Shown piece by piece: positions 31,079 through 44,138 of a DNA stretch of 64,000 nt; within the stretch, counting starts at the first letter, position 1; each line of letters opens with the position of its first letter. Location: positions 62,001-126,000 of the forward strand of contig JABABU010000027.1 of the NCBI GenBank assembly GCA_014238065.1, written 5' to 3'. The stretch is from Actinomycetota bacterium. Its GTDB lineage: Bacteria; Actinomycetota; Acidimicrobiia; Acidimicrobiales; Poriferisodalaceae. Below the pieces are notes generated by a model, which saw only the letters and a program-made list of their open reading frames with translations, searched no databases and had not been told where the DNA came from. Position numbers and translations under genes: made by a program.

Positions 31079-33840
31079 TGGGCAGTTATGACGTCTCGTC
31101 GCCACTGGTTCTTCTTGGCCTGATCTTCGGGACCGGCTACTCGCTGCTCGGCATCGGGCTTGTGCTCGCCTATCGATCCAGCGGGTTCATCAACTTCGCG
31201 CACGGGGCGACGGGACTGTTCACGGCTTCAATGATGTCGGTTGTCGTCCGCGACTACGGGGTGCCGTACTGGTTGGGGTTCCTCGGCGCCTTGGTTGCAG
31301 CCGCATGCATCGGGGCCGCGCTCGAAGTGGTGATCGTGAGAAAGCTGAGCGGTTCGCCGAAAGTGTTGGCCATGGTCGCAACGCTCGGCACAGGCCAGGC
31401 ATTGCTACTACTCGCGCTGTCGTTCTCAGGCGGCGGACTCGGAGGCGGCAATTTTCCTCAGCCACCGTGGTTCCCGGATTTCGACCTTGATGCATACGTC
31501 TCACCTTCTGCGACAGCGCTCCTCGTGCTCTCGCCGATTGTGGTCGTCGGGCTCTACCAGTTCCTGCAGCGGTCGAGATTCGGACTGGCGATCCGGGGCG
31601 CAGCATCCAACCCCGACGCGGCCACACTCGCCGGCGCAGATCCGCACTACCTGGCGATGCTCTCATGGGCGCTGGCTGGAGCCATCGCCGCGTTTGCCGC
31701 CATGCTCATCATCCCGAATCAGAGTACCGTCACGCCAGACACGCTCGGCCCCGACTTCATCATCCGAGGTCTCGCCGTCGCCGCGCTCGCTCGATTCGCG
31801 AACCTTCCCGTTGCCCTTGCTGCCGGTCTCGGAATTGGTGTCGCAGAGCAGCTCATCGCAACGAATCCCGACAGTTCCGGCTATTTCGAAGTGCTGCTCT
31901 TCGCTCTGATCTTGGTTGGCGTAGCACGCACGTTCTCTTCGCCACGCGAAGAAACCGAACCGTGGACCACAGTCTCGACAGCAGACCGTCTGCCCGATGA
32001 ATACCTCGACATCTGGCTCATCAGACACCTCGGCTGGGTTGCGGCAGCGGTCGCGTTGGTCGCCGCGATCCTGATACCGATCTGGGCCAGCAACGAGTCG
32101 GCTTTCATCTGCTCGACGGTGCTCGCGTTCGCGATCATCGCGATGTCAATCAGCTTCCTCACAGGACTTGGTGGACAGCTCTCCCTCGGCCAGGTCGGGT
32201 TCGCAGCCATCGGGGCGGTGGCAGCGGTCGAGGTCTCGTCGCGTTTCGGCACACTCATCGGCGCCATGCTGGTGTCAGCGGTCGTGGGCGCTGCTGTTTC
32301 GGCGGCGGTAGGGTTACCGGCTCTCCGGGTCAGGGGGTTGCTCCTCGCCGTGGCGACGCTGGCGTTTGCTCTCGTCACGTCTTCGTGGCTCCTCCGTCAG
32401 GACTGGGCATTCGGCGCTGGTGCTTCGACGCGGCCCATCACTTTGCTCGGGTCCGAACTCGAGACGTCACGCGGGTACTACTACGTGGCGCTCGGATCGT
32501 TCGTGGTCGTCGCCACGCTTGCGACCATCGTTCGCCAATCGTCCATCGGCCGTCACCTCATCGCTGTTCGCGACAACGACAACGCTGCCCGCGTGTTTCA
32601 GATCGCGAGTCGGCGAACGTTGCTCGGTACCTACGCCCTCGCTGGAGCCATCGCCGGGGTCGGCGGCTCAGTGCTGGCGTTCAACAACACGTTCGTGAGT
32701 CGGGCGATATTCACGCCGTCGGCCAGTGTCGACGTCGTTGCGATCGCCGTCGTGGGCGGACTTGGCGAACTCATGGGCCCACTGCTGGGTGCCGCATACC
32801 TGATCGGTATCCCTGAGTTCTTCGACCTCGAACTCTCGGCCCTCGCCGGTCTCAATGCAGCCTGGCTGATTCTGATCCTCGAGCAACCGCGGGGACTGGT
32901 GGGCCTCTTCTCCTCGACGAAGCGCCATGTCATCGATGCCATCGCCCGGCTGCACGGCGTCACGGTCACCGATGACATCGAACCGGTTGCCACTCCCGCC
33001 ACCTCAGCGCTCTCCTTGCAACCGGCGTCAGCACCCCAAGCCGACCAGTCCGGTCAGCCGCTTCTCGAGGTCATCACACTCACCCGAAACTTCGGCGATC
33101 TGATGGCAGTCGACAACGTTACGTTCAAGGTTGCAAGGGGCGAGACACTCGGACTCATCGGTCCGAACGGGGCGGGAAAGACGACGTTGTTCGAGCTCGT
33201 CAGTGGCTTCATCAAGCCCGACGTAGGACGCGTCATCTACGACGGTGCCGACATCACCTCGCTCTCCCCAGAGGCACGTAGCCGACTCGGACTGGTGCGA
33301 TCGTTCCAGAACGCCACGCTGTTCCCTACGATGACCCCCCTTCAGGTCGCGATGATGGCCACCCAAGCGGCCACTCGTCGGCGGCTGGTGCTGGCCGGCG
33401 GGGCCGCTGAGCGCTCGATGGAGAAGTCGGCGACGGAGACACTCGCTGCCTTTGGCCTCGGCGAGATCGCCGACGAGCCGATCTCACAGCTCCCGACAGG
33501 GACAAGACGTCTCGTCGAGCTGGCCGCGAACGTTGCGCTGCAGCCCCGACTCCTCTTGCTCGATGAACCCTCAGCCGGCATCGCGCAGGCCGAGACGGAG
33601 GCACTTGGTGCTGCCATCATGTCGATTCGAGACAGCTTCGACATTACGATCGTCGTGATCGAGCACGACATGCCTCTCCTGACGTCGATCTGTGAACGCA
33701 TGATCGCGCTCGAGGTCGGCGCCATCATCGCCGAAGGCACTCCTCACGAGATCCAGCGCCATGAGGCGGTCGTCAGGAGCTACCTGGGTACCGACACCGA
33801 CGCGATCGCAAAGTCAGGCCCCGTCGACCTCCGCGAATAG
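31078..33840 (+). CDS. LivH-LivM-LivG fusion: ABC permease/permease/ATPase
   Basis: A 920-residue single-chain core of a LIV-type importer. Residues ~1-290 are LivH-like (LAYRSSGFINFAHGATGLF). Residues ~320-605 are LivM-like (FLTGLGGQLSLGQVGFAAIG, AVRDNDNAARVFQI). Residues ~660-905 are LivG-like, with Walker A GPNGAGKTT (~695) and Walker B LLLLDEPSAG. The LivG signature is degenerate (LPTGTRRLVEL in place of LSGGQ), so the LivF domain of the preceding protein may supply the canonical site. The end overlaps the convergent SDR gene by 27 bases. Confidence 0.88.
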   Translation: MGSYDVSSPLVLLGLIFGTGYSLLGIGLVLAYRSSGFINFAHGATGLFTASMMSVVVRDYGVPYWLGFLGALVAAACIGAALEVVIVRKLSGSPKVLAMVATLGTGQALLLLALSFSGGGLGGGNFPQPPWFPDFDLDAYVSPSATALLVLSPIVVVGLYQFLQRSRFGLAIRGAASNPDAATLAGADPHYLAMLSWALAGAIAAFAAMLIIPNQSTVTPDTLGPDFIIRGLAVAALARFANLPVALAAGLGIGVAEQLIATNPDSSGYFEVLLFALILVGVARTFSSPREETEPWTTVSTADRLPDEYLDIWLIRHLGWVAAAVALVAAILIPIWASNESAFICSTVLAFAIIAMSISFLTGLGGQLSLGQVGFAAIGAVAAVEVSSRFGTLIGAMLVSAVVGAAVSAAVGLPALRVRGLLLAVATLAFALVTSSWLLRQDWAFGAGASTRPITLLGSELETSRGYYYVALGSFVVVATLATIVRQSSIGRHLIAVRDNDNAARVFQIASRRTLLGTYALAGAIAGVGGSVLAFNNTFVSRAIFTPSASVDVVAIAVVGGLGELMGPLLGAAYLIGIPEFFDLELSALAGLNAAWLILILEQPRGLVGLFSSTKRHVIDAIARLHGVTVTDDIEPVATPATSALSLQPASAPQADQSGQPLLEVITLTRNFGDLMAVDNVTFKVARGETLGLIGPNGAGKTTLFELVSGFIKPDVGRVIYDGADITSLSPEARSRLGLVRSFQNATLFPTMTPLQVAMMATQAATRRRLVLAGGAAERSMEKSATETLAAFGLGEIADEPISQLPTGTRRLVELAANVALQPRLLLLDEPSAGIAQAETEALGAAIMSIRDSFDITIVVIEHDMPLLTSICERMIALEVGAIIAEGTPHEIQRHEAVVRSYLGTDTDAIAKSGPVDLRE

Positions 33841-34620
33841 ATCGCGCTTGTTGAACGCCGCTGTCATGAATCGGCGGCTCGCCTTGCGGCGTGTCAGCCA
33901 AGCAATCCGTGCCCCGGAAGTGTCGGCGGCGAGCACCTGGTCGGCGAGCCAAGGAGTCACGGTGTGGACGTCATCGCCCAGGATGTTGAAGATCTTTTTC
34001 GCCTTCTCCCATTGCTCGGACGTGAGGTCGTAATCGCCGACCAAAAGGTCCGTCACGACGATTCCTGGCGAGAGCGTGCATATCTGGACCGGCGTGTCGG
34101 CCGTGTCCTTTCGCAGTGCCTTCTGCATGTAACGAACTGCCCGCTTGGTTGAGCCGTATGCGGCCATTCCTGCCTGCGTCGCACCGTCGGAACCGAAGCC
34201 TTCGGTATTCCACAGCTGACCGTGTCCCTGATCGAGCATGTTGGTGATCGCAACCTTCGATGCGAGAAGTGCACCGGTGATGTTGGTGCCCACGACGGCT
34301 TCGATCGCCTCGTCGCTCTGCTTCCACAGCGGTTTACGCTCGATCGACATGCCGGCGTTGTTGATCCACACATCGACGCCACCGAACTTCTCCGAAGCGA
34401 CGTCCCAGACCCCTTGGAGCTGCGACGAGTCGGTCACATGACAGACCGAACCGGCGACACGACCTTCGCCGTAGTAGCCGCCGAGTTCGGTGACAGCAGC
34501 CGCCACCGACGACTCAGACCGCCCGGTGATTGTGACCTGGCACTCTCGTTTCAGAAACTCACGGGCCAGCCCGTTGCCGATTCCTCGGGTTCCGCCCGTG
34601 ATGACGACTCGTTTGCTCAT
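33814..34620 (-). CDS. Short-chain dehydrogenase resembling chlorophyll b reductase (NYC1/NOL)
   Basis: A 268-residue classical SDR: TGGTRGIG (8-15) binds NAD(P), NNAG (87-90), catalytic Tyr155 and Lys159 in AAYGSTKR. Beyond the generic motifs, it shows features I associate with plant NYC1/NOL: LAREFLK, VWINNAG, GFGSDG before the active Tyr, LSPGIVVTDLL, then a FNIL segment and a WLTRRKASRRF-like tail. Those enzymes reduce chlorophyll b to 7-hydroxymethyl chlorophyll a. The match is from memory, not a search. It is the last gene of a leftward operon with a serine hydrolase and a Dabb protein. Confidence 0.75.
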   Translation of the reverse strand: MSKRVVITGGTRGIGNGLAREFLKRECQVTITGRSESSVAAAVTELGGYYGEGRVAGSVCHVTDSSQLQGVWDVASEKFGGVDVWINNAGMSIERKPLWKQSDEAIEAVVGTNITGALLASKVAITNMLDQGHGQLWNTEGFGSDGATQAGMAAYGSTKRAVRYMQKALRKDTADTPVQICTLSPGIVVTDLLVGDYDLTSEQWEKAKKIFNILGDDVHTVTPWLADQVLAADTSGARIAWLTRRKASRRFMTAAFNKRDLFAEVDGA

Positions 34621-34641
34621 GTCTTGGCTCCAGCCACGCCG

Positions 34642-35559
34642 TCAGCGCCTTGTGAAATTCTGTACGCCGCCGTGATCGGCGAACCCATCGAGGGTCTGAC
34701 CGTCCACGAACGTACAGATGATGTCGGCGAGCAGATCGCGCGCCTCGACATCGTCACCGCGCAGATCAGGCTCGAGAAATGCTCGTCCGGTGGTCTCGTC
34801 GATCGGGTCACACATGGTGAAGTGGTTGCCGTCGACCAACTCGATGAGATACGAGTCGTCGTCGTGTCGGTCAATTGCCTCATCGAAGGTTCGGCGTACC
34901 GGATTGTGTTCGCCTTCGTCGGATCGGTAGCGGTCGCGACTGGCGGCGATGACTGCGTCGGACCCACCACATACAAGCAGCACCGGAACCGCCGAGGGCA
35001 CCGCAACCACCGCAGTTTCACCGTGGCCGAGCGCCGTGGCCGTCATCGTGTGAGCGCCGTAGACGGCGACTGATCTGAGCCCGGGAATCCATGCGGGATT
35101 GGTGTTGTGCAAGGCAACTGTTCCGCCTGCCGAGTGTCCGACCAGCGACACTGCTGCGAGATCGCACACGTCAGATCCGACGTCAGCAAGTGCAACGAGG
35201 AGAGGATTGATGGCCGACGCTGAGCATCGTGTTCCGACGACGCCGGGAGCGAGGGCCATCATGTCGAGACCTGGTGTTATGCCAACGCCGGCAGGTCCGA
35301 GTTCACCGATGGTCGAGTAGGTCACAGCACAGTTGCCGGCCTCGACGAGCCGAACCGCCAGCCATCGGTACCCGTCGGGGGCAACGTTGATGCCGGGCAT
35401 GATCAACACTGTCGGACGAGGAGGCTCATCGATGGGTGGCACTTCACCTGTGAGCCGTGCCTCTTCCATTCGTTCGTCGTCCGCGGCGTAAAAGAGCGTG
35501 CCGACTCCTGCCTCGGACTCCGGAGCGTCGAACGCGAAGTGGCGGCCTCTGACGATCAC
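34642..35559 (-). CDS. Serine alpha/beta hydrolase (chlorophyllase-like architecture)
   Basis: A 305-residue hydrolase. TVLIMPGINVAPDGYRWLA provides the oxyanion region, VSLVGHSAGGTVAL holds the nucleophile Ser143, LLVCGGSD a likely acid-strand Asp, and ELVDGNHFTMCD the catalytic His. GTG 35559 was chosen as the start because it overlaps the Dabb stop (GTGA). It precedes the NYC1-like SDR by 21 bases. Removal of phytol or another ester from a tetrapyrrole is an inference from neighbours; a general lipase or dienelactone hydrolase is the alternative. Confidence 0.8.
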   Translation of the reverse strand: MIVRGRHFAFDAPESEAGVGTLFYAADDERMEEARLTGEVPPIDEPPRPTVLIMPGINVAPDGYRWLAVRLVEAGNCAVTYSTIGELGPAGVGITPGLDMMALAPGVVGTRCSASAINPLLVALADVGSDVCDLAAVSLVGHSAGGTVALHNTNPAWIPGLRSVAVYGAHTMTATALGHGETAVVAVPSAVPVLLVCGGSDAVIAASRDRYRSDEGEHNPVRRTFDEAIDRHDDDSYLIELVDGNHFTMCDPIDETTGRAFLEPDLRGDDVEARDLLADIICTFVDGQTLDGFADHGGVQNFTRR

Positions 35560-35843
35560 GAAGCGGCGGTGTAATCGATGGTCGTCGCCGCTGACATCAG
35601 GTCGAGAACAACCGCCCTGACTTCGAGGTGGACCGCATCTGATTCGTAGGCGTGGTAGGCCTCGAGATCTGTCCACGTCGTCGTGAGCGCAATGTCGGCC
35701 GAGTAGGCGCCGGCCAACTCGTTGACATCGACCCGCAGGTCGATCATCCCGTCGACCTTGCCCCTCATCGACTCCATGACGTCTTGGCAGCGTTTGGAAG
35801 TCCGAGGATCGGCGAGGCTGACGAGAACGGTGTGTACATGCAT
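35556..35843 (-). CDS. Dabb (A/B-barrel) domain protein
   Basis: A 95-residue single-domain protein starting MHVHTVLVSLADPRTS, with GMIDLRVDVNELAG, ALTTTWTDLEAYHAYESDAVH and a conserved His-x-E pattern. This is typical of the stress-responsive dimeric A/B-barrel family, which includes EthD-like and heme-degrading relatives. It is first in the leftward operon and shares the divergent region containing operator G. It may bind or process a small hydrophobic intermediate. Confidence 0.78.
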   Translation of the reverse strand: MHVHTVLVSLADPRTSKRCQDVMESMRGKVDGMIDLRVDVNELAGAYSADIALTTTWTDLEAYHAYESDAVHLEVRAVVLDLMSAATTIDYTAAS

Positions 35844-35866
35844 GACGAACTCGTCCTGAACTGCTT

Positions 35867-35891
35867 GTTCCGCTTGGGGGAACAGGGTTTC
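35867..35891 (+). promoter_or_regulatory. IclR-type operator site G
   Basis: GTTCC-N7-GGAAC-N3-GTTTC, one of the two best matches, in the 79-base divergent region. It is oriented toward the rightward lipocalin-like operon, but the palindromic core could also serve the leftward SDR operon. Confidence 0.72.
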
Positions 35892-35910
35892 TCTCGGCGG
35901 ACCAGCAATC

Positions 35911-35916
35911 TACGAT
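35911..35916 (+). promoter_or_regulatory. -10 box giving a probable leaderless transcript
   Basis: TACGAT fits the TANNNT -10 consensus; the expected start of transcription, 7 bases after it, coincides with the GTG start codon at 35923. No ribosome site precedes the GTG, which agrees with leaderless initiation. A -35 would overlap the third half-site of operator G. Confidence 0.5.
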
Positions 35917-35922
35917 GGCCCC

Positions 35923-36381
35923 GTGAACAGCGTCAACCGCGACTACGGACCCGCCAGCCCCCGCCCATACCAGTGCTTCATGGGTCGATGGGAGGGATTG
36001 TGTAAGAGCTTCACGCCTGATGGCCAGTTCCTCGATGCCTCAGCGGTCCACATGGACGTCTATTGGCTCGACGAGCAGACGTGGCACCTCCATGAGCACT
36101 TCGAGAACCTCTACGAGGTCGGCGAGACGACCTACGACACTCCGATCTCGGTCGACGGAAAGCGGTGCTGGGCGACGAGCGACATGATCAACCTGAATGG
36201 CACAGAACTCACGGCCTTCAACTACGTGTTCACGATCGATTCTGCTGTCAGCGGCACCATCGTCTACAACAACCACTACTTCATCGACACCGACACGCGG
36301 CGAATCATCACGCACAAGGTTCGGGACGGCGCCACGCACCTCTTCCAGATCCAGGACTTCGTAAGGATTCAGCGACCATGA
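35923..36381 (+). CDS. Lipocalin-like (GxW) single-domain protein 1
   Basis: A 152-residue protein with one predicted beta-barrel. FMGRWEGLCKSFTPDGQF contains the GxW start motif of calycins. Alternating strands follow (HMDVYWLDEQTWHLHEHFE, AFNYVFTIDS, TIVYNNHYFI). It has no signal peptide, so it is cytoplasmic. Several His/Trp/Tyr residues line the predicted barrel. It heads the rightward operon under operator G. A carrier or enzyme for a tetrapyrrole or similar hydrophobic compound is my inference. Confidence 0.65.
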   Translation: MNSVNRDYGPASPRPYQCFMGRWEGLCKSFTPDGQFLDASAVHMDVYWLDEQTWHLHEHFENLYEVGETTYDTPISVDGKRCWATSDMINLNGTELTAFNYVFTIDSAVSGTIVYNNHYFIDTDTRRIITHKVRDGATHLFQIQDFVRIQRP

Positions 36382-37190
36382 TCGTGCAGAGCAGTTCCCC
36401 TGATGGCACCCACTTCGTCATCGCCATGCAACAGCACACCACGTTCGCTGGACAACTCGCCGCCCACTTCGGCAACGACGACTTCGCGGCCATCGCACCC
36501 GCCGAGCCGATGCAGTTCATCGTCGACAACCACGATGCCGGATGGGCCAACCTCGATACCGAAGCGCCCCAGAGCTCCGAAACCGGTCTTCCCTACAACC
36601 TCACGGCGACACCCTTGCCACAAATCATCAGCACCAGTGCCGGCTCACCGGCACTGAACGAGGAGCACCACCCGTTCTCTGGGATCATCTCGTCGATGCA
36701 CACATACGGGTTGTATACCGGCCGCTACGGACTGTCGGACAAGATCTTCCTCGACGCAATCCCCGCTGACCTTCGGCCAAGCGTCGACGGGATGCTCGCC
36801 GCCGAAAGTGACCGACAGGAGCGTCTCAAGGGCGTGCTGGCCCTCTCTGATCCCGACTATGCCTCGGACGACTTCTTGTTCCACGCATACAAGCAACTGC
36901 AGTTCTTCGACACCCTGTCGCTCTACTTCCACATGACACCGGAGGGCGAACGAGGAGAGGCCGAATTCCTCAACGTTCCACGGTCGGTCGGCGACGACGT
37001 GTCGATCACGGTCACTGAGCTCGGTAACGGTCATTACGATGTGACGCCATTTCCTTTCGACACCGATGGACTCACCGTCGGTACCGAGGGCCGCTATCTC
37101 GCGCCGCAGGAGTCAGGAACACCGCTGCCAGGCGTGCTGGCCACCACTGCTGTCTCCGAACAGGTCGTCACGCTCACCGGCGCTTCATGA
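36378..37190 (+). CDS. DUF3891 family protein
   Basis: A 270-residue protein beginning MIVQSSSPDGTHFVIAMQQH, with HTTFAGQLAAHFG and VDNHDAGW, the His/His-Asp residues of the DUF3891 family, plus HHPFSGIISSMHTYGLYTGRYG. The H...HD pattern suggests a metal-dependent helical (HD-like) fold. Function unknown. It is coupled by ATGA overlaps to lipocalin-like genes on both sides, so it probably acts on the same compound. A hydrolase or de-chelating role would be speculative. Confidence 0.72.
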   Translation: MIVQSSSPDGTHFVIAMQQHTTFAGQLAAHFGNDDFAAIAPAEPMQFIVDNHDAGWANLDTEAPQSSETGLPYNLTATPLPQIISTSAGSPALNEEHHPFSGIISSMHTYGLYTGRYGLSDKIFLDAIPADLRPSVDGMLAAESDRQERLKGVLALSDPDYASDDFLFHAYKQLQFFDTLSLYFHMTPEGERGEAEFLNVPRSVGDDVSITVTELGNGHYDVTPFPFDTDGLTVGTEGRYLAPQESGTPLPGVLATTAVSEQVVTLTGAS

Positions 37191-38116
37191 CCGCGGGCGG
37201 GACAAAGGGCTCCCTTTCCAAGGGCAGTTTCTCCAAGGGAGTCGGCCAGTGGATCGGTGCCGCTGAAGTCTTCGACGGCGACGGCCAGTTCTGCGGACAC
37301 GGACGAGACGAACGCACGGTCGTGGCCGACGACGGCGCGGGAAGCGTGAGCGTCGAAGTCAGCTTCGAGGGGCCCTTCGCACTCGCCGGCAACTACACCA
37401 TCGTCGACGGAGGTGACCACCGGCGTTACGAGGGGCCACTGAATCACGGGTACGCCGAAGTTCTCGGCGATGGCCTCGTCACGGCCAACAACTACTGGCC
37501 TGACCTGGGCCTCTCACAGCGGTTCTTCCTGATGGTGCTACCCGGCAACTCGACACAGCTGTCTCTCGCGCTCATCAGCCGCGGCGACAGAGCCCGCTGG
37601 ACCGTTGCCGGCGAATACCGGCGCCAAGTCGACACAGGAGAGCCAACCCCACTTGCTCATGTGCCGATCGACCCTGGCTCCGTTCGCAACGATGCGACCG
37701 CCGGACGTGGCGAGGTCATGTTTCATCGGGAAGGGCGGTGGGTCGGCGCGCTGACACACCTCGACGGCAACCTCGGCGACCCAAAGAGTGACGACTACAC
37801 CGAAGTCGTAGAGTCGAACGGAGACAGCGTCCACCGCTCGATTCAGGGGAGCCGGTTCGTCGCCGACCACAACTTCATTTCGAACACCGATGGATGGTCG
37901 GAATGGTGTCCGACCGGCGGTGTTGTCGGCAGCGCATCGCTCTGGGGTGGCAGAGCCCGCTCGGGTCAGCTGATCCATCAAGCCAGCGGGCTTCGGGTCT
38001 GGACACGAAACATCACCACACTCGATGGCACGATCAGAGCCGTGGTCGACACCTGGTTCCGTGGCGAGGATCGCATTGGCGCGACGTTCGGCGTGCTGAC
38101 CTTCGAGCCGGCATGA
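37187..38116 (+). CDS. Lipocalin-like (GxW) two-domain protein 2
   Basis: A 309-residue protein with two similar barrels. Domain 1 starts VGQWIGAAEVFDGDG (Trp22); domain 2 starts REGRWVGALTHLDGN. Both have a G-x-W-x-G opening and a DG turn, as in the neighbouring proteins. Domain 1 also has YEGPLNHGYAEV and NNYWPDLGLSQRF, paralleling YLGPD and HYYSP in the related protein at 39582. No signal peptide or enzyme motif is present. Overlaps upstream and downstream genes by ATGA. Confidence 0.65.
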   Translation: MTAGGTKGSLSKGSFSKGVGQWIGAAEVFDGDGQFCGHGRDERTVVADDGAGSVSVEVSFEGPFALAGNYTIVDGGDHRRYEGPLNHGYAEVLGDGLVTANNYWPDLGLSQRFFLMVLPGNSTQLSLALISRGDRARWTVAGEYRRQVDTGEPTPLAHVPIDPGSVRNDATAGRGEVMFHREGRWVGALTHLDGNLGDPKSDDYTEVVESNGDSVHRSIQGSRFVADHNFISNTDGWSEWCPTGGVVGSASLWGGRARSGQLIHQASGLRVWTRNITTLDGTIRAVVDTWFRGEDRIGATFGVLTFEPA

Positions 38117-38790
38117 GCGATGCGACGCCCCGGGACGACTTCGATGGCGCGTGGATGGTCAAGGAATACGTCCACGATCCTGGCGGTGAGCTGATCGGAA
38201 CAGTTTCACAGCGACGCCTCGTCGAACCAGCTGACACCGATCGGTTTCGCGTGACACAGCACTGCTCCGTCTCTGACGAACTCCGCGATCACCCGATGAT
38301 TCGGTTCGAGGGCACGTGGATGTTCGACCTCGCAATCGAAGGAGCACAGCGCCACTACCTCGGCCCTGATGTCATCGGTATGGGAACCCAGTGGGCTCCT
38401 GGAGCAATGACTGGCGTCGGCCAGTGGCCCAGGTTCGGTCACGATTTCGAGTCCTATGCCGTCCTCATCGCCCCAGATCGGCAGCTGACCGGTGGCTTCT
38501 TCTCGACCGCCGGCCAGTCATTCGTTGACATCATCGGCATAGCCGTGCCAGAGGTACTCGGCGTCGAACCGCAGCTGGAACTCACCGCAGGAGCCCCCGA
38601 TCTCGACCGCGACGCCTGGCCCGTTCAGCGGGCCGTTGGGCCCATGCGCATCGGAACAGCACAAGCGACCCCGAACCTACGCCGTCGATGCTGGACGATG
38701 CATGACGTGCTCGGGGGTTCAACCATCACGATCGTCGAGACCGTTGATGCCGGTGGCGTGTCGACCACCATCACCGCTCAGCCGAACTGA
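38113..38790 (+). CDS. Lipocalin-like (GxW) protein 3
   Basis: A 225-residue protein with an opening FDGAWMVKEYVHDPGGEL (GxW) and a strand pattern RHYLGPDVIGMGTQWAPGAM, which matches the YLGPD element of the related protein at 39582. The C-terminal part may be a partial second barrel (RRRCWTMHDVLGGSTITIVE). It ends the rightward operon, one base before the convergent VOC gene. Function inferred only by association. Confidence 0.62.
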   Translation: MSDATPRDDFDGAWMVKEYVHDPGGELIGTVSQRRLVEPADTDRFRVTQHCSVSDELRDHPMIRFEGTWMFDLAIEGAQRHYLGPDVIGMGTQWAPGAMTGVGQWPRFGHDFESYAVLIAPDRQLTGGFFSTAGQSFVDIIGIAVPEVLGVEPQLELTAGAPDLDRDAWPVQRAVGPMRIGTAQATPNLRRRCWTMHDVLGGSTITIVETVDAGGVSTTITAQPN

Positions 38791-38791
38791 C

Positions 38792-39589
38792 TCATCTCGC
38801 CGGCCTGACATCGATCACCACTCCGCCTGGCGAGACCATCCTGTGCGGAGACGCGTCCCGAACGGTGAACCCGACCGCCTGAATCCCTGCCAGATCAGCG
38901 CCTGCAAAGTCGGCACCATCGTGACCGACGAACCTCAACAGCTCGAACCGGATGGGGTCGTTGGCAGCGTTTGCGAACATCACCATCTCGAGTTCGATCG
39001 TGGTATCCGGCAGACACATGAACGCGGCCACTTCTGAGGAGCCGAAAGCCAAGTCCATCCCACGGGTTGCGCCGCGGTCTTCCCACCATGGCGCTTCGGC
39101 AGCTCGATCTGCGACTGCCCACACCAGGCTGTGGATCTGCGAGTGAAGTTCGTCGGCGTTGTCGTCCAGGAGGCTCGCTCGACGACTCGGACTTTCGATG
39201 AGCACGACCGGGACGTGGTCGGGACCCCAGATCGTGACTTGACGCATCGAGAACGGTCCGATGTCGATCGTGGCGATAGGGCCGGGATCGCCCCCGGCGA
39301 CCACGGCTCGCTCGACGCTCTCCTCCATCGCAGTCGTGTAGATGTCGAGACCGCGGGGCCCAAGGTCGTAGCCGGTGAGTCGAGATCCCTCCTTCGCCTC
39401 GCTCAACACCAACTCGGTCGGGTGCCCAGAACCGCGGCCCATCGTGACTGAGTCGGCGTCTGCGGCTTCGACGCCGAAGTCGAACGCCCCGAAGAAGCGG
39501 ACCGTGGCGTCGATGTTGGTGGTCCCGATCACCACATGGCTGGCCGACCCGAACACGGCTGAAGAGCCGACTGGCCACTGCTCAGTCAT
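38792..39589 (-). CDS. VOC (glyoxalase/bleomycin-resistance fold) protein
   Basis: A 265-residue protein of two paired beta-alpha-beta-beta-beta modules: ASHVVIGTTNIDATVRFFGA opens the first, GVVIDVRPA closes the last. The second half contains CLPDTTIELEMVMFAN. Possible metal ligands include His18 in ASHVV and a Glu in ELEMVMF. The VOC fold covers extradiol dioxygenases, glyoxalases and epimerases. It is last in the leftward operon with the Rieske oxygenase and RCC-reductase-like genes, overlapping its predecessor by 8 bases. Confidence 0.78.
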   Translation of the reverse strand: MTEQWPVGSSAVFGSASHVVIGTTNIDATVRFFGAFDFGVEAADADSVTMGRGSGHPTELVLSEAKEGSRLTGYDLGPRGLDIYTTAMEESVERAVVAGGDPGPIATIDIGPFSMRQVTIWGPDHVPVVLIESPSRRASLLDDNADELHSQIHSLVWAVADRAAEAPWWEDRGATRGMDLAFGSSEVAAFMCLPDTTIELEMVMFANAANDPIRFELLRFVGHDGADFAGADLAGIQAVGFTVRDASPHRMVSPGGVVIDVRPAR

Positions 39590-40517
39590 CCGCCGCCCAG
39601 GTCAGCGGGCCGAACACGAAGTCGGTGAGCTGATCACCCCACGAGATCTTCCATGCAACGGCCATCGTGTGATCGCGGTCGATGAAGAACTCGCGACCCT
39701 TCACTTTCCATGGCTCCTTGCAGTGATGTTGGGTCGTGTACAACGCCCTGCCGTACCCAATGGCATTGCCGAACAGGTCGGGCCCCTCGTAGGTGTGGCG
39801 ATTCGAGTTGCGGGTACGCGTGTAGGTGAACCTCCGATCGATGGATCCACCAAGCGTCCAGGTGTGGGTCGCCCGAACGAGGTCGATCGGTTCGTGGCGT
39901 ATGGACACCTCGACTTCACCCTTGCGCTCCTGATCGGGGCCATAGACCTCGCACACGCCTTTCCAACTTCCAGCGGTGCGGTCTGGCAGCACGTGCGGGA
40001 GGGTGGCCATCTCGCGTTCGGCCTCGAGAAACGCGTCGATGCGGGCCTTGGTGTCCGGATTCGTGTCGTAATCGTGAGCGTTCTGGTACACGCCGTTGAA
40101 GACCGAGAACAGTGTCGGGCCCTCGTACAGCAGCGAGGAGTACACCTGGGTGATCCCGTCGGGAAGGATCTGGTTGAGCGTGTTGAGATCGGCTCGCCAC
40201 GCCGGCGAGTAGTAATGCGAGTCGACGATGGAGCCGTACGGATGGCCACCACCGAAGAAGTCGGGGCCGAGGTAGATGCGATTCGCACCCTGGTCGTCGA
40301 CACCGAACGCGAAGTTGTTGATCTCGAATCGGTTACGCAGCGGACCCGTGTTCATGAAGTTGCAGTGCATGTAATAGGTGGTGATGCCGTCCTCAAACAC
40401 TGAGGACCGGTTGACCTTGTTGAAGCCGGTGTGGCCTCCTTCTGCGTCGAACACTGACGGAATGCCGTACCACTCACCGGTGATTCGCTGTTGCCATTCG
40501 CTGACTTCTTCGCTCAC
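39582..40517 (-). CDS. Lipocalin-like (GxW) two-domain protein 4
   Basis: A 311-residue protein with two barrels. Domain 1 opens ITGEWYGIPSVFDAEGGHTG and contains YLGPDFFGGGHPYG and HYYSPAWRADL. Domain 2 opens TAGSWKGVCEVYGPDQER and contains YEGPDLFGNAIGYGRAL. Both repeats share GxW-x-G and a Y-x-G-P-D-x-F-G strand, so a duplication is likely. No signal peptide. It lies directly after an RCC-reductase-like gene in the operator D operon, linking this domain family to the oxygenase genes. Confidence 0.68.
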   Translation of the reverse strand: MSEEVSEWQQRITGEWYGIPSVFDAEGGHTGFNKVNRSSVFEDGITTYYMHCNFMNTGPLRNRFEINNFAFGVDDQGANRIYLGPDFFGGGHPYGSIVDSHYYSPAWRADLNTLNQILPDGITQVYSSLLYEGPTLFSVFNGVYQNAHDYDTNPDTKARIDAFLEAEREMATLPHVLPDRTAGSWKGVCEVYGPDQERKGEVEVSIRHEPIDLVRATHTWTLGGSIDRRFTYTRTRNSNRHTYEGPDLFGNAIGYGRALYTTQHHCKEPWKVKGREFFIDRDHTMAVAWKISWGDQLTDFVFGPLTWAADD

Positions 40518-40518
40518 A

Positions 40519-41232
40519 TCAATTCCCCTCGTCGATGAGACTGGCTTGGATTTCGGCGCTGACCTCTACACCGAGAAGACGGTCGACTTGGGCCCACACC
40601 GGATCGACGTCTGGATTGAAGATCGAACCGCGATTCGCCCGGTCTCTTGCCTCGAGCTGAGCGTCGGTGACACCAGCCATTGCGCTCACCGGAACGCCTT
40701 CGGCAACGAGGGAGAGCCAGTGATCGCGATAGGCATCAACGGTCGCGTCGATCGACGCGAAGGCATCTGCGTCGGCACGGTGAGCCAGCATCCACGCCGA
40801 CATCAACTGCCACTGCCGAGGTGAGAGGTGCGCAGGCGTGAGGCCTTCGAGTTCCAGCGCATCGTCGTGGGCCTCGGTGAGGGGCACGAAGCAGTGATCG
40901 AGGTAGGCCAAGTTCGCGCCAGGGTCGACTCTCGGAATCAAGTCGAGGTGGAACGCATAGTGCTGGCCGGCGTGCACAGAGTCGAGGGTGAAGTGGGGGA
41001 CGGCGCTGTGACGACCGGTGAAGGCGAACATCATGTGGCTGTCGAGGCCGAACGCCTCGACCGTCATCGACACGTACACGACGCGAGCGTCGATTCCCTC
41101 CAGAACTCGATGGACACCGACGTCAGATCCGTCCAACGCCGAGCTCAGCTGACGGTCGAGCGACGTCTCGAGGCCGAGTGTCCGCGCCACGTGGTCGATC
41201 GTTCGGCCGCACAGATTGCCGGGAAGACTCAT
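40519..41232 (-). CDS. Red chlorophyll catabolite reductase-like (FDBR superfamily) protein A
   Basis: A 237-residue protein. VPHFTLDSVHAGQHYAFHL (78-96) followed by DLIPRVDPGANLAYLDHCF resembles the central P-x-F-x-x-[ED] strand and LDL-x-x-R-x-D-L-x-x-x-YL core of plant red chlorophyll catabolite reductase and the bilin reductase superfamily. Asp84 falls where the plant enzyme has a substrate-binding Glu. The C-terminus NPDVDPVWAQVDRLLG also fits. The start is ATG 41232 (ATGA overlap with the oxygenase). The assignment is from remembered family sequences; a structure-based search would test it. Confidence 0.68.
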   Translation of the reverse strand: MSLPGNLCGRTIDHVARTLGLETSLDRQLSSALDGSDVGVHRVLEGIDARVVYVSMTVEAFGLDSHMMFAFTGRHSAVPHFTLDSVHAGQHYAFHLDLIPRVDPGANLAYLDHCFVPLTEAHDDALELEGLTPAHLSPRQWQLMSAWMLAHRADADAFASIDATVDAYRDHWLSLVAEGVPVSAMAGVTDAQLEARDRANRGSIFNPDVDPVWAQVDRLLGVEVSAEIQASLIDEGN

Positions 41233-42371
41233 GTGTCCATCTCTTCGACGGTCGGAAACACCCATGCGTTGGCAAGCTCAGGATCGGAGATTCTCGCGGG
41301 CGAGGCGATCACTGCTGCTGAACGGCGGGCTTGTTCGTCGGTCGGCGTCGGAAGACCCCAGCCCTTGTCGAGTTGAGCTTGACGCCATCGGCGGTAGGCC
41401 AGCTGGATGCCGTCGGATTTCACGTGCAGCTCGGCCGACAGATCGAATGGCAGCAACTCAGGTCGCTGCGACTCGACCGTCGGCTGGTCTTCGTTGAAGA
41501 TCTTCAGCGTGCGTCGAATCGAGTCCTTGTCGGCCCATCCACCGGTGAAGAAGGTCCGGAGCATGATGAACTTCGACGTGGTGTGCGACTCGTCGCGCGG
41601 AACAGCCGCGGTGAAAATACGAATCTCGCCGAGAGGCAACCGGACGATCAACATCGACACGTTCGGGGGATAGAAGCCCGTCGTCGTGGTCACCGGCTTG
41701 CGTTCTTTGTTCTTGCCGATCACCGCCCAGATGCCGGAAGGCACAGGTGGGTGGAGGTCGACCGACGCGGTCACCACTGCCAGATGGTCACCGATGGTGA
41801 GTTCTTCGATCTCGAAGTCGGCGATCTCTGGTTCGTCGGGGTTGCCGAACGAGCCGGCGTGGACGAAGGGCGTGTGCGAGATATCGACGGCGTTCTCAAG
41901 GACTCGGTCGTAGTTGGCGACCCAGTCGAAGTCGCCTTCCACGGCGCGGTAGCCATCGGCTTTCGCGTCGAGCGCCAGATCGAGACCCTCCAACTCCGGC
42001 ATCGGTGGACGCTGGTCTTCGGCAAGGTCGCCGAGAAACACCCACACGAAGCCATAGCGCTCGATACATGGGTAGGTGTCGACCCTGGCCTTTTTCGGAA
42101 TGGCGAGCCCTTCACGATTGGCAGGGATAGACACGCACATGCCGGAACTGTCGTACATCCACCCGTGGTACGGACACTGCACGCAGTTGCTGATGACCGT
42201 GCCACCGGCAAGCGAGCCGCCGCGATGGACACACAGGTCGGACTGCGCGTTGACGGTGCCGTCCTTCGAACGCCACAACACGAGATCGTGGCCGTGAACG
42301 GCGACGGCAACTGGTTTGTCGGCAACGACCGACCCGAACTCGATCGCATACCAGTGGTTCTTGATCAACAT
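41229..42371 (-). CDS. Rieske non-heme iron oxygenase
   Basis: A 380-residue oxygenase alpha subunit. The Rieske centre is Cys47-x-His49 and Cys66-x-x-His69 (DLCVHRGG, CVQCPYHGW). The mononuclear iron site is NAVDISHTPFVH with Asp163 as bridge, His166 and His171. The group includes phthalate/vanillate-type and PaO-type oxygenases. Plant PaO opens the chlorin ring of pheophorbide a; the C-terminal CxxC of PaO is not seen here. It stands between two RCC-reductase-like genes, the same functional pair as in plants. Start ATG 42371 lies 7 bases after the upstream gene. Confidence 0.87.
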   Translation of the reverse strand: MLIKNHWYAIEFGSVVADKPVAVAVHGHDLVLWRSKDGTVNAQSDLCVHRGGSLAGGTVISNCVQCPYHGWMYDSSGMCVSIPANREGLAIPKKARVDTYPCIERYGFVWVFLGDLAEDQRPPMPELEGLDLALDAKADGYRAVEGDFDWVANYDRVLENAVDISHTPFVHAGSFGNPDEPEIADFEIEELTIGDHLAVVTASVDLHPPVPSGIWAVIGKNKERKPVTTTTGFYPPNVSMLIVRLPLGEIRIFTAAVPRDESHTTSKFIMLRTFFTGGWADKDSIRRTLKIFNEDQPTVESQRPELLPFDLSAELHVKSDGIQLAYRRWRQAQLDKGWGLPTPTDEQARRSAAVIASPARISDPELANAWVFPTVEEMDT

Positions 42372-42378
42372 CGTGATG

Positions 42379-43191
42379 TCAGGTTGGTCGAGGGAGTTGA
42401 CGATCGCCACCCCAAAGGGCGGCGACGAGACGGCTGGTGAGGTTGTCACCGAAGAACCGAACGGCCATGACGTTGGCCGGATCGCGCTCAGCGATGTTTC
42501 TACGACGCGTGAGATCGTCGGCGGCCAGCTGGACGCGCCGCTCGGCCGGAACCGGCTCTGCTTCGTCGACGAATGCAAGCCATTGGTCGACCCGCGTATG
42601 CGCGAGCTGGGAGATCTGGTTCAGGCGCTCTTCGCTGTACGTGCGTCCGGGGGTGGTGAAACAGATTGCTGTTTCAGACAGCGCTTGACGAACGTAGAGC
42701 GCTTTCGATGTGAACGGCGCAAGACCCTCATCGGCACGTAACTCGAGGAAGTCGTCGTTCATTGGTTCGAAGTACTTGTCGAGCGAGTCGGTGTCAAGCA
42801 TGAGATCGGATCTGGCGTTGAAGTCGATGTAGAACCACAGGTCGGGCAGAGTTCCCCAGGCAATGCCGAGATGCGGCACGTCGATCTGGGGTCCGAGCCA
42901 CGCCGTGAGGTGCATGTTTGTGAAACCGAGGGTCGGGTTGCCAATCCACGAGTGGACGAGCCAGTCGATCTCCGGGCCGGAGTAGGCGGCCAACCGGCCC
43001 GCCGGATACTCGTTCTCACCGCGGTACGACTCGAGATCGTCGGTGCTCGGGTCGCGGGTGAGTTCGAACCTGGCTCGGATCTTTGTCATGAGTTCTTCGG
43101 TGATCGACCACAACCGCTCGAAGGTGGCCGAAGAGTCAGTTGGTGCACGCTTGTCGAAGATTTCCTCGACGCCTTGAAGTGTCTCTTTCAT
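42379..43191 (-). CDS. Red chlorophyll catabolite reductase-like (FDBR superfamily) protein B
   Basis: A 270-residue protein. Parts I match to plant RCC reductase: LWFYIDFNARSDLML (119-132), a DKYFEPMNDDFLELR helix, PFTSKALYVRQALSETAI (159-176), WLAFVDEAE, and the ending AVRFFGDNLTSRLVAALWG (plant: FGEEVSSRVVHAI). RCC reductase reduces the linear tetrapyrrole made by PaO, with ferredoxin as donor and no cofactor. ATG 43191 has GAGGAG 4 bases upstream; an ATG at 43227 is less likely. It is first in the leftward operon below operator D. The similarity is by inspection. Confidence 0.7.
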   Translation of the reverse strand: MKETLQGVEEIFDKRAPTDSSATFERLWSITEELMTKIRARFELTRDPSTDDLESYRGENEYPAGRLAAYSGPEIDWLVHSWIGNPTLGFTNMHLTAWLGPQIDVPHLGIAWGTLPDLWFYIDFNARSDLMLDTDSLDKYFEPMNDDFLELRADEGLAPFTSKALYVRQALSETAICFTTPGRTYSEERLNQISQLAHTRVDQWLAFVDEAEPVPAERRVQLAADDLTRRRNIAERDPANVMAVRFFGDNLTSRLVAALWGGDRQLPRPT

Positions 43192-43265
43192 CGTCTCCTC
43201 ATGGCCTTCGAGTCCAGTGTTCAACAATCCCAGTATCCAAAAAACCAGTACCCGACAAACTCAGT

Positions 43266-43290
43266 GTTCCGAGGAGCGGAACGATGTTTC
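43266..43290 (+). promoter_or_regulatory. IclR-type operator site D
   Basis: GTTCC-N7-GGAAC-N3-GTTTC in the 155-base divergent region between the RCC-reductase/Rieske operon and the CitE-like gene. Oriented rightward. A further GAAAC 9 bases after the last half-site extends the symmetry. TAGCAT at 43307-43312 is a plausible -10 for the rightward gene. Confidence 0.72.
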
Positions 43291-43346: not shown

Positions 43347-44138
43347 ATGACGAGAAGCAGTCTCTATGTGCCAGGCGATCGGCCCGCACGCTTCGACAAG
43401 GCGCTGGCATCGGGCGCCGACGCCGTCATTCTCGACCTCGAGGACGGTGTTTCAGCCGACAAGAAGACCATCGCTCGGAGCAACGTGTGCTCGTGGCTCG
43501 GCGCCAACGGGACAGCCGCTGCTCTGGTCAGAGTCAACAGCGGAAACACGGGCGACAAGGACATCGAAGCCCTTCGAGCTGTCGGTCTTCCGAGGCTCGT
43601 CGTCCCGAAGGCGACACCAGAGACCTGCGCCATCAAAGGTGCCGTGGTCGTTGCGTTGATCGAAACCGCAGAGGGCGTCGCTCGGATCGACGAGATCGCC
43701 CAGCTGACCCAAGTGAGGCGCATCGCCATCGGCGAGGCCGATCTCGCCGAAGACCTCGGCATGTGGCCATCGCACGACGGCCGAGAGTTCGCAACAATTC
43801 GCGCTCAGATCGTCGTCGCGTCTGCTCACCGAGGCCTCGAGGCGCCGGCTGGACCGGTGCCGACCGACATCGAAGACCTCGAAGCACTCGAAGCGAGTTC
43901 GGATATTCTCCGCAGGACAGGGTTCGGCGGACGCTCGGTGATCCATCCAAGGCAGGTCGAAGTCGTCAACCGGGTATTCGAGCCTTCGACGTCCGAGATC
44001 GAATGGGCGCGCGGGGTCCTCTCGGCAGACCGAGCATCGGGTGGCCAGATCGCTGTCTACGACGGCGGGTTCGTCGACGCCCCGATCGTCGCTCGCGCCC
44101 GCCGGATCCTCGACAGAGTCGGCGAGCCGAACTCGTGA
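43347..44138 (+). CDS. HpcH/HpaI aldolase / citrate lyase beta (CitE-like) protein
   Basis: A 263-residue TIM-barrel lyase. RSSLYVPGDRPARFDKALASG is the typical opening, VILDLEDGVSADKK holds the metal-binding acidic cluster, VALIETAEGVARIDEIA the conserved Glu, AIGEADLAEDLG the second metal site, and GFGGRSVIHPRQVEVVN the CoA/substrate end. Members cleave malyl-, citramalyl- or methylmalyl-CoA-type compounds. The start is ATG 43347 with AGGGAA just upstream. Under operator D, it could split a substituted malyl-CoA at the end of the pathway; stand-alone CitE-like proteins act as such lyases. Confidence 0.86.
   Translation: MTRSSLYVPGDRPARFDKALASGADAVILDLEDGVSADKKTIARSNVCSWLGANGTAAALVRVNSGNTGDKDIEALRAVGLPRLVVPKATPETCAIKGAVVVALIETAEGVARIDEIAQLTQVRRIAIGEADLAEDLGMWPSHDGREFATIRAQIVVASAHRGLEAPAGPVPTDIEDLEALEASSDILRRTGFGGRSVIHPRQVEVVNRVFEPSTSEIEWARGVLSADRASGGQIAVYDGGFVDAPIVARARRILDRVGEPNS

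What the first reader, a model, noticed from the sequence alone, without database searches (positions are those of the whole stretch)
33814..43191. Candidate bacterial chlorophyll/tetrapyrrole-opening gene cluster
Within 9.4 kb there is an SDR resembling NYC1/NOL chlorophyll b reductase, a serine hydrolase of chlorophyllase-like architecture, a Rieske oxygenase and two RCC-reductase-like proteins. In plants these functions act in sequence: chlorophyll b reduction, ester removal, ring opening by PaO, reduction by RCCR. The co-occurrence of several independent matches to one pathway in a bacterium, in operons that share an operator, is unlikely to be chance. No SGR-like Mg-dechelatase was recognised; the unknown lipocalin-like or DUF3891 proteins could fill that gap.
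Basis: partly seen in the sequence, partly recalled or inferred. Interest (0 to 1): 0.95.

Follow-up and report, generated by a model that had tools for sequence, protein, structure and literature searches.

The report
Bacterial regulon for breaking tetrapyrrole pigments
Many soil and water bacteria share an operon built around two relatives of a plant chlorophyll-breakdown enzyme, an oxygenase and many bond-cutting enzymes, which probably lets them feed on chlorophyll-like or bile-like pigments, though no substrate has been shown.

Summary
The 42379-43191 product is a genuine red chlorophyll catabolite reductase (RCCR) family protein (Pfam E 8e-15; Arabidopsis RCCR E 6e-9). The 40519-41232 product is a second, remote member (AlphaFold model Z about 23 to RCCR). 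Between them lies a Rieske oxygenase, but it is VanA-type, not PaO-type. The hydrolase is chlorophyllase-like only at superfamily level, the SDR is generic, and Staygreen was not found (inconclusive).

The unit is larger and widely conserved. In 78 loci, mostly Actinomycetota, RCCR has Rieske in 76, RCCR2 in 75 and a double-barrel DUF3598-fold protein in 75. An IclR-type operator joins these genes to amide and lactam hydrolases, a CoA transferase and a C-C lyase; an ABC importer lies beside them. Two unrelated cyclic-amide-type hydrolases replace each other beside PrpD. This looks like catabolism; no heme oxygenase or phytochrome was found in the window genome.

Best reading: a bacterial regulon that opens or takes up a tetrapyrrole, reduces it with two bilin-reductase-like enzymes, oxidises it to pyrrolinone/maleimide fragments and mineralises these. 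The substrate is unproven; plant RCCR's Glu154 is Ala in 82 of 82 rows, so the reaction is probably not RCCR's own.

The parts
42379..43191 (-). RCC-reductase family protein (RCCR-like, FDBR superfamily)
   Evidence: PF06405 E 7.8e-15; Arabidopsis RCCR 3agb E 6.4e-9, profile E 1.3e-13
41229..42371 (-). Rieske non-heme iron oxygenase, VanA_C type
   Evidence: PF00355 + PF19112; Rieske Cys/His ligands and His166/His171 invariant in 75 of 75 rows
40519..41232 (-). second FDBR/RCCR-superfamily reductase (RCCR2); its start overlaps the end of the Rieske gene by 4 bases
39582..40517 (-). lipoD: double beta-barrel, DUF3598/BFA1 fold; candidate carrier (inferred)
   Evidence: AF2 pLDDT 93; Foldseek 5yvf E 3.7e-9, 2o62 E 1.7e-8; Z 19.1 to both
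38792..39589 (-). VOC-like protein; no Pfam match at E 0.01, name from the sequence only
   Evidence: 0 families; in 2 of 21 loci of the Acidimicrobiia group and 2 of 2 of the L009/L040 group
34642..35676 (-). alpha/beta hydrolase with GHSAGG elbow, PETase/chlorophyllase-like superfamily (start may be further in)
   Evidence: GHSAGG, Asp170 and His215 invariant in 68 of 68 rows; profile hits PET hydrolases E 5.5e-12; 6 of 16 members hit PF07224
33814..34620 (-). short-chain dehydrogenase
   Evidence: PF00106 E 3.2e-37; in 68 of 78 loci
35556..35843 (-). Dabb domain protein
   Evidence: PF07876 E 4.8e-9
35923..36381 (+). lipoA: small conserved protein of unknown family
   Evidence: no Pfam match at E 0.01; in 15 of 21 loci of the Acidimicrobiia group
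36375..37190 (+). DUF3891 protein (start approximate)
   Evidence: PF13030 E 5.8e-33
37187..38116 (+). lipoB: remote relative of lipoD
   Evidence: hhalign 99%, E 7e-18 to lipoD
38113..38790 (+). lipoC: related to the first part of lipoB
   Evidence: hhalign 94% with lipoB over about 120 columns
43347..44138 (+). CitE/RipC-like C-C lyase
   Evidence: RipC model E 2.9e-41, below cut-off; PF03328
44208..45770 (-). nitrilase-superfamily amidase, 520 aa; only the first half matches the domain
   Evidence: PF00795 E 6.4e-35 over 6-260; Cys148 in 70 of 72 rows
45767..46594 (-). IclR-family regulator, likely owner of the operator (binding inferred)
   Evidence: BhcR, PcaR/PobR, KdgR and IclR models, all below cut-off
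46658..47983 (+). CaiB-type CoA transferase 1 (true start may lie further in)
   Evidence: PF02515 E 2.6e-114; succinyl-CoA:mesaconate model E 5e-61, below cut-off
47980..48786 (+). Cyclase-family (kynurenine formamidase-like) hydrolase
   Evidence: PF04199 E 1.9e-29
48777..50219 (+). MmgE/PrpD family protein
   Evidence: PF03972, PF19305
50216..51865 (+). HyuB, caprolactamase-beta-like cyclic amide hydrolase subunit
   Evidence: PF02538 E 2.5e-158; CapB model E 3e-82, below cut-off
51862..53904 (+). HyuA, caprolactamase-alpha-like subunit
   Evidence: PF01968; CapA model E 2e-144, below cut-off
53898..54491 (+). isochorismatase-family amidase; ORFs from 46658 to here overlap end to start, so probably one operon
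   Evidence: PF00857 E 1.8e-40
54483..55547 (-). HMG-CoA-lyase-like protein (no operator site seen; linked by neighbourhood only)
   Evidence: PF00682; PRK05692 model 334 bits, over cut-off 246; in 11 of 21 loci of the Acidimicrobiia group
55415..56611 (+). CaiB-type CoA transferase 2 (no operator site seen; linked by neighbourhood only)
   Evidence: in 10 of 21 loci of the Acidimicrobiia group
21393..22139 (+). Asp/Glu racemase-superfamily (Amdase/EutA-like) enzyme 1
   Evidence: PF17645 E 1.1e-18
22129..23373 (+). FAD-dependent monooxygenase
   Evidence: PF01494 E 3.6e-48; in 47 of 78 loci
25401..26156 (+). Asp/Glu racemase-superfamily enzyme 2
   Evidence: PF17645 E 2e-22
26191..27429 (+). 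acyl-CoA-dehydrogenase-fold protein, probably a flavin monooxygenase (start approximate)
   Evidence: best PDB profile hits 4kcf E 5.9e-37, 3m9v, 5gj7, with 3mxl nitrososynthase and also true acyl-CoA dehydrogenases among the hits; a flavin reductase gene accompanies the operon in 28 of 78 loci
27701..33840 (+). branched-chain-amino-acid-type ABC importer (binding protein + two large fused genes); linked by position
   Evidence: ORFs; PF13458 E 5e-5, below its cut-off; relatives beside other copies of the cluster
43265..43283 (.). operator TGTTCCGAGGAGCGGAACG between RCCR and CitE genes
   Evidence: 1 mismatch; same place in 19 of 19 loci of the Acidimicrobiia group at up to 2 mismatches
35866..35884 (.). 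operator between the SDR-hydrolase-Dabb and lipoA-DUF3891-lipoB-lipoC units
   Evidence: 1 mismatch; also at this promoter in 7 relatives
25372..25390 (.). operator upstream of AspRac2/flavin monooxygenase
   Evidence: 1 mismatch
23404..23422 (.). operator upstream of the neocarzinostatin-like gene
   Evidence: 1 mismatch
46606..46624 (.). operator between IclR and CaiB1
   Evidence: 2 mismatches; same promoter in L009, L010, L012
21352..21370 (.). weaker operator-like site upstream of AspRac1
   Evidence: 3 mismatches

Best explanation
This is an IclR-controlled catabolic regulon for a tetrapyrrole-derived pigment. A macrocycle or an open-chain tetrapyrrole is de-esterified by the alpha/beta hydrolase. 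The Rieske oxygenase oxidises or opens it with O2, as PaO does in plants. Two ferredoxin-bilin-reductase-superfamily enzymes (RCCR-like and RCCR2) then reduce methine bridges or end rings in turn, as PebA and PebB or RCCR do. The DUF3598-fold double barrel probably holds the hydrophobic intermediates. Flavin monooxygenases, SDR and, in other bacteria, aldehyde dehydrogenases cut and oxidise the chain to pyrrolinones/maleimides. HyuAB or an amidohydrolase of the dihydropyrimidinase kind, with the nitrilase, isochorismatase and cyclase proteins, hydrolyse the lactams, imides and amides. CaiB, PrpD, CitE, HMGL and PEP-mutase-family enzymes turn the resulting methylated diacids into central metabolites. 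Shown: families, two folds, gene order, conserved operator sequence. Inferred: the substrate, the order of steps, binding of IclR and every reaction.
For: RCCR is a PF06405 member. RCCR2 has the same fold: Z 22.3-23.0 to RCCR and 15.3-23.4 to bilin reductases, against 4.6 for the first unrelated fold; 44 of 46 Foldseek hits at E<=1e-3 are RCCR, FDBR or CPOX, all tetrapyrrole enzymes. The RCCR2 profile finds the RCCR gene itself in 4 genomes (best E 3.9e-15). In 78 loci: Rieske 76, RCCR2 75, lipoD 75, nitrilase 73, hydrolase 68, SDR 68; 52 share the order RCCR>hydrolase>Rieske>RCCR2>lipoD>SDR. The operator lies before RCCR in 19 of 19 loci of the Acidimicrobiia group. In the 16 loci of two groups where PrpD is seen, 12 carry the amidohydrolase and 4 carry HyuAB, none both and none neither. 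Hematinic acid and maleimides are known small oxidation products of chlorophyll and heme (PMC7318184, abstract and passages). No heme oxygenase or PHY domain was found in the window genome.
Against: No substrate or product is known. I noticed no ferredoxin or Rieske reductase gene in the cluster, though I did not search for them. The importer is of the amino-acid/amide type, whose usual ligands are smaller than a tetrapyrrole (recalled). The residue aligned with plant Glu154 is Ala in 82 of 82 rows. The Asp/Glu-racemase-like proteins lack a cysteine at the first position used by maleate isomerases (signature recalled). Heme oxygenase is present in 14 of 33 genomes with PF06405. In the 54 actinomycete loci the operator at up to 2 mismatches is seen at cluster promoters in only a few. 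L052 holds an RCCR gene without the other core genes. Outer-membrane and other barrels score as well as tetrapyrrole-binding ones against single halves of lipoD.
Confidence: 0.6

Rival explanations
1. A catabolic regulon for another pyrrolic or polycyclic natural compound (for example a di- or tripyrrole pigment) in which the FDBR fold has been re-used on a non-tetrapyrrole.
For: Changed active site in RCCR; small-ligand type importer beside it; the downstream genes would suit any compound giving lactams and methylated diacids.
Against: 44 of 46 structural hits of RCCR2 at E<=1e-3 are RCCR/FDBR/CPOX proteins, and RCCR is nearer to plant RCCR than to any other solved protein.
Confidence: 0.25
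2. A faithful bacterial copy of the plant PaO/phyllobilin pathway starting from chlorophyll, with NYC1-like SDR, chlorophyllase, PaO and RCCR.
For: RCCR with a Rieske oxygenase in 76 of 78 loci; hydrolase family with PF07224 hits in 6 of 16 picked members.
Against: Rieske is VanA type and PaO PF08417 was not found in the genome (control rang in 2 of 14 genomes); SDR generic; Glu154 replaced; no Staygreen in 24 genomes (inconclusive, as no control rang).
Confidence: 0.1
3. Bilin biosynthesis: FDBRs making a chromophore for a phytochrome or other biliprotein from biliverdin.
For: Characterised FDBRs do this (recalled; PMC10151467 abstract); heme oxygenase is found in 14 of 33 genomes.
Against: Heme oxygenase not found in 19 of 33 genomes, including the window's; phytochrome PHY domain in only 2 of 33; operon rich in hydrolases, CoA transferases and lyases.
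Confidence: 0.05

Closest known systems
Plant PaO-RCCR (phyllobilin) pathway of chlorophyll breakdown
   Same: A Rieske oxygenase next to an RCCR-family reductase, with an ester-type hydrolase.
   Different: Oxygenase from the VanA_C group, a second reductase, Glu154 replaced by Ala, no recognised Mg-dechelatase, plus a downstream amide/CoA catabolic part and an IclR-type operator.
Ferredoxin-dependent bilin reductases (PebA/PebB, PcyA, HY2, pre-PcyA)
   Same: Fold and probable chemistry; two reductases, as in the PebA/PebB series.
   Different: No PHY domain in 31 of 33 genomes, heme oxygenase often not found, catabolic neighbourhood; sequence nearer to RCCR than to FDBRs. Rockwell 2023 (PMC10151467; abstract and passages seen) describes bacterial pre-PcyA clusters with heme oxygenase and globins; the words Rieske and actinobacteria do not occur in its main text.
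Bacterial Staygreen (Mg-dechelatase) homologues
   Same: Another plant chlorophyll-breakdown family found in non-photosynthetic bacteria, with unknown physiological role (PMC8531759, passages).
   Different: Not found in the 24 genomes with RCCR that were searched (inconclusive); not part of this operon.
Itaconate/mesaconate and lactam catabolism (RipC, mesaconate CoA-transferase, caprolactamase)
   Same: Related CoA transferases, CitE-type lyase, HyuAB, isochorismatase-type amidase.
   Different: The hits to these NCBIfam equivalog models are below their cut-offs, so these are relatives with probably other substrates, here in one regulon with tetrapyrrole-type reductases.

Membership tests
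RCC reductase family (PF06405), protein 42379-43191 | score above the curated Pfam cut-off | tested here: met
   55.2 bits against 24.9
RCC reductase family (PF06405), protein 42379-43191 | active-site Glu154 of Arabidopsis RCCR (number recalled) | tested here: not met
   Ala in 82 of 82 rows; an invariant Asp (Asp237) lies in the 290/291 region, aligned with Asp290 rather than Asp291
RCC reductase enzyme activity | ferredoxin-dependent reduction of RCC to pFCC | not testable with these tools
   needs assay
FDBR/RCCR superfamily, protein 40519-41232 | FDBR alpha/beta/alpha fold | tested here: met
   AF2 pLDDT 96; Z 23.0 to 2zxk, 23.4 to 6kme
FDBR/RCCR superfamily, protein 40519-41232 | sequence score above Pfam cut-off | tested here: not met
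   window protein has no PF06405 match; 18 of 37 relatives match at E<=0.1, best 2.9e-6
Pheophorbide a oxygenase | PF08417 domain | tested here: not met
   no match in the window protein or the genome; control rang in 2 of 14, over the cut-off in 1
Rieske non-heme oxygenase | Rieske Cys/His motif and two metal-binding His | tested here: met
   75 of 75 rows
Chlorophyllase | PF07224 match | tested here: inconclusive
   window protein none; 6 of 16 picked relatives at E<=0.01, best 1.3e-7, beside PETase, DLH and PAF-AH models
NYC1/NOL chlorophyll b reductase | closer to NYC1/NOL than to other SDRs | not tested
   only generic SDR models matched
Staygreen Mg-dechelatase | PF12638 in the genome | tested here: inconclusive
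   0 of 1 and 0 of 24, but the control genomes did not ring either
DUF3598/BFA1 fold, protein 39582-40517 | double-barrel fold | tested here: met
   Z 19.1 to 2o62 and 5yvf; no Pfam sequence match to it

The most novel reading that the evidence does not exclude
A complete bacterial pathway that opens and mineralises chlorophyll-type or other tetrapyrrole pigments, evolved apart from the plant route by pairing a VanA-type Rieske oxygenase with two RCCR/FDBR-type reductases. It would be used by soil actinomycetes, marine Acidimicrobiia and actinomycetes with genomes of 1.0-1.7 Mb, and would help to explain where the yearly load of chlorophyll breakdown products goes.
Probability: 0.4. Interest if true: 0.95.

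Novelty: new variant of a known kind. Interest (0 to 1): 0.85.

Why it matters
Chlorophyll is made and degraded on a scale of 10^12 kg a year (PMC7318184, introduction passage), yet the listings of my ten paper searches showed no bacterial operon that consumes the open-chain products. A conserved operon in culturable actinomycetes makes the question directly testable. It would also add a new home, catabolism, for the bilin reductase fold, known to me from pigment biosynthesis and plant senescence, and would suggest a role for several families of unknown function.

Tried and rejected
Chance co-occurrence was rejected: order and operator are conserved while RCCR identity falls to about 50%. Bilin biosynthesis for phytochrome was rejected as main reading. 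Lipocalin-like proteins as Mg-dechelatase found no support: lipoD has the DUF3598/BFA1 fold, lipoB is homologous to lipoD and lipoC to lipoB, lipoA to none of them by hhalign. Single halves of lipoD resemble nitrobindin (heme, Z 12.3-12.7), CpeS (bilin, Z 11.2) and UnaG (Z 8.4), which fits a carrier, but outer-membrane barrels reach Z 14.3, so this proves nothing. Maleate isomerase as role of the AspRac proteins was left open: Cys201 in 96 of 103 rows (one gene can appear twice in these rows), but no cysteine at the first expected position (signature recalled). Viral relatives of RCCR2: none confirmed of 31 pattern matches. PADLOC: none for three proteins. Literature: 'RCC reductase' + 'Actinobacteria' 0 papers; RCCR + Rieske + bacterial + operon 0 papers; in the listings of eight further searches (titles and abstract starts, capped lists) I saw no bacterial RCCR catabolic operon. 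I saw abstracts and passages of PMC10151467 and PMC7318184 and passages of PMC8531759; no paper was read whole, and the library holds open-licence papers only.

Rows dropped before counts: translated hits under 60% coverage or with a stop or X were dropped, leaving RCCR 81, RCCR2 76, lipoD 77, Rieske 77, hydrolase 67, nitrilase 71 of 81 loci; the conservation counts rest on these plus the window (Rieske also without three repeat genomes). A7 holds 36 of the 76 RCCR2 loci and A8 29 of 77 lipoD loci (at most 80% identity), each plus the window; A9 holds 15 picked hydrolase loci plus the window. The distance correlations have no housekeeping control.

Full report
What is there. The 42379-43191 protein is over the curated cut-off of Pfam PF06405, RCC_reductase (55.2 bits against 24.9). 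It matches Arabidopsis RCCR in the PDB at E 6.4e-9 alone and 1.3e-13 as a four-member profile, while the nearest bilin reductase scores 0.003. The 40519-41232 protein has no single-sequence match to RCCR. Its profile picks out only RCCR in the PDB (E 0.006), profile-profile comparison with the first protein gives 96%, and 18 of 37 relatives match PF06405 at E 0.1 or better (best 2.9e-6). A search of 298 genomes with the RCCR2 profile also finds the RCCR gene in four of them (best 3.9e-15). Its AlphaFold model (pLDDT 96) has RCCR as best Foldseek hit (1.4e-10), and 44 of 46 hits at E<=1e-3 are RCCR, FDBR or CPOX entries; the other two are a subunit of algal FtsHi motor complexes. VIA-align gives Z 22.3-23.0 for RCCR, 15.3-23.4 for bilin reductases, about 20 for the FtsHi subunit, 11.0-16.4 for coproporphyrinogen oxidase and 4.6 for the first unrelated fold.

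The oxygenase between them, 41229-42371, has Rieske and VanA_C domains. Its best solved relatives are SxtDIOX/SxtT, NdmA, NdmB and dicamba demethylase. PaO (PF08417) was not found in it or in the genome (94.65% complete), with the control ringing in two of 14 genomes. The hydrolase has an invariant GHSAGG elbow (68 of 68 rows) and belongs with PET-hydrolase/cutinase-like enzymes; 6 of 16 picked relatives also match the Chlorophyllase model, and 6 of 16 a PAF-acetylhydrolase model with a better best score. The SDR matches general models only. The lipoD protein (39582-40517) folds as two beta barrels like DUF3598 and BFA1.

Conservation. A scan of genome contigs found 159 stretches encoding relatives of the RCCR-like protein, of which the best 80 were kept. 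Two groups dominate. L010-L030 is called the Acidimicrobiia group here: 17 of 21 titles say Acidimicrobiia, -ales or -aceae, two say only bacterium, one marine group Sva0996 and one Rhodospirillaceae. Another 54 are named actinomycetes (Actinomadura, Nocardia, Streptomyces, Micromonospora, Actinoplanes, Catellatospora, Nonomuraea and others). Single records are titled Deltaproteobacteria, Anaerolineales and Oligoflexaceae. In 78 loci (L009-L089 less three from genomes seen before) RCCR has Rieske nearby in 76, RCCR2 in 75, lipoD in 75, nitrilase in 73, hydrolase in 68, SDR in 68, an Asp/Glu-racemase-like enzyme in 54, aldehyde dehydrogenase in 53, FAD monooxygenase in 47, the acyl-CoA-dehydrogenase-fold protein in 40 and a flavin reductase in 28. 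52 of 78 have exactly RCCR>hydrolase>Rieske>RCCR2>lipoD>SDR. Some loci are cut by contig ends, so misses are upper bounds. L052, a full-length locus, has RCCR alone among these core genes. Pairwise distances of the seven main families correlate at 0.79-0.95, and at 0.56-0.92 inside L031 and later (no housekeeping control), as expected for a unit inherited together.

Regulation. The palindrome TGTTCCGNNNNNCGGAACA occurs with one mismatch at 23404, 25372, 35866 and 43265, and with two at 46606 and 46719. The first five lie before the neocarzinostatin-like gene, AspRac2, the SDR-hydrolase-Dabb/lipoA divergent promoters, the RCCR/CitE divergent promoters and the IclR/CaiB divergent promoters; the last lies inside the listed CaiB ORF, near its start. 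In relatives the site with at most two mismatches stands before RCCR in 19 of 19 loci of the Acidimicrobiia group. Over all 78 loci there are 48 such sites, against 3, 3 and 7 in three shuffles. Among the actinomycetes it is seen at cluster promoters in only a few loci, so their operator may differ. The IclR gene (45767-46594) sits at one site. That it binds the site is inferred. The importer at 27701-33840, the HMG-CoA-lyase-like gene and the second CaiB gene have no site of their own and are linked by position or by conserved neighbourhood.

Function. The operator-linked genes include HyuAB (caprolactamase-like), an isochorismatase-type amidase, a cyclase-family hydrolase, a nitrilase-type amidase, a CaiB transferase, a CitE/RipC-like lyase and PrpD. 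The specific NCBIfam names of these are below their cut-offs, so only the chemistry class is meant; the HMG-CoA-lyase subfamily model is over its cut-off. In the 23 loci of the Acidimicrobiia group and L009/L040, PrpD is seen in 16: 4 of these carry HyuAB and 12 an amidohydrolase, never both and never neither. The window itself carries HyuAB. Pfam names the replacing protein only as Amidohydro_1/3; the kind, dihydropyrimidinase, is my reading of the sequence. Such replacement argues that a cyclic amide or imide is hydrolysed. Maleimides and hematinic acid are known oxidation products of chlorophyll and heme. This set points to catabolism.

Source of the open chain. Of 33 genomes with PF06405, including the window's, heme oxygenase was not found in 19 (the window's among them) and found in 14; the PHY domain was found in 2. 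So the reductases do not generally serve a phytochrome, and where heme oxygenase is missing the linear tetrapyrrole is either made by the Rieske enzyme, by an untested heme-degrading family, or imported. Whether it comes from chlorophyll, heme or phycobilins cannot be told. The residue at plant Glu154 is Ala in 82 of 82 aligned rows. The numbering is recalled, checked only by the F218V difference between 3aga and 3agb. The RCCR2 family has an Asp, invariant in 37 of 37, at the aligned position. The two reductases probably divide labour and differ from plant RCCR in where they reduce.

Gaps. I noticed no ferredoxin, no reductase for the Rieske protein and no dechelatase in the cluster, but did not search for the first two. 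The Staygreen test is inconclusive because its controls did not ring. The importer type usually carries smaller ligands (recalled). Substrate, products and order of steps are inference.

Distribution. PF06405 was seen in 4 of 198 relatives and 3 of 396 genomes drawn from the phylum, the window genome listed in both, and in 11 of 296 from the class of G573 (G573 and G577 were already known from loci). RCCR2 was seen in 13 of 298 relatives, the window genome being the only one of its own family among them, so the cluster is patchy.

Verdict. The better description is a conserved bacterial tetrapyrrole-type catabolic regulon, not the plant pathway in a bacterium.

Noticed in passing
L090, L091, L092, L095, L096: Six actinomycete genomes of only 1.0-1.7 Mb have one to four PF06405 hits each. 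In three of them (L090; L091 with L096; L092) I saw two RCCR and two RCCR2 genes with Rieske and other cluster genes. Small genomes keeping a doubled cluster suggest an important food source.
   Followed up: partly
L052: A Nonomuraea locus has the RCCR-like gene without Rieske, RCCR2 or lipoD within 10 kb.
   Followed up: no
window 23480-25345: An operator-preceded unit codes for a neocarzinostatin-like secreted protein (PF00960, just below its cut-off) and an SBBP beta-propeller protein; relatives lie in the cluster regions of L005 and L009.
   Followed up: partly
L006:12430-13341: PEP-mutase/isocitrate-lyase family lyases lie in or beside the cluster in 18 of 54 actinomycete loci and 4 of 21 loci of the Acidimicrobiia group.
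   Followed up: partly
L009:8626-9966: A luciferase-like monooxygenase (PF00296) sits between the isochorismatase and RCCR genes.
   Followed up: no
Foldseek hits 8xqw_H and 8xks_P of the RCCR2 model: A subunit of the algal Ycf2/Orf2971-FtsHi motor complexes matches the bilin reductase fold (Z about 20), a resemblance not part of this finding.
   Followed up: no
window 11634-13520: Two adjacent iron/2-oxoglutarate-oxygenase-like genes (named from the sequence, not searched) lie outside the regulon.
   Followed up: no
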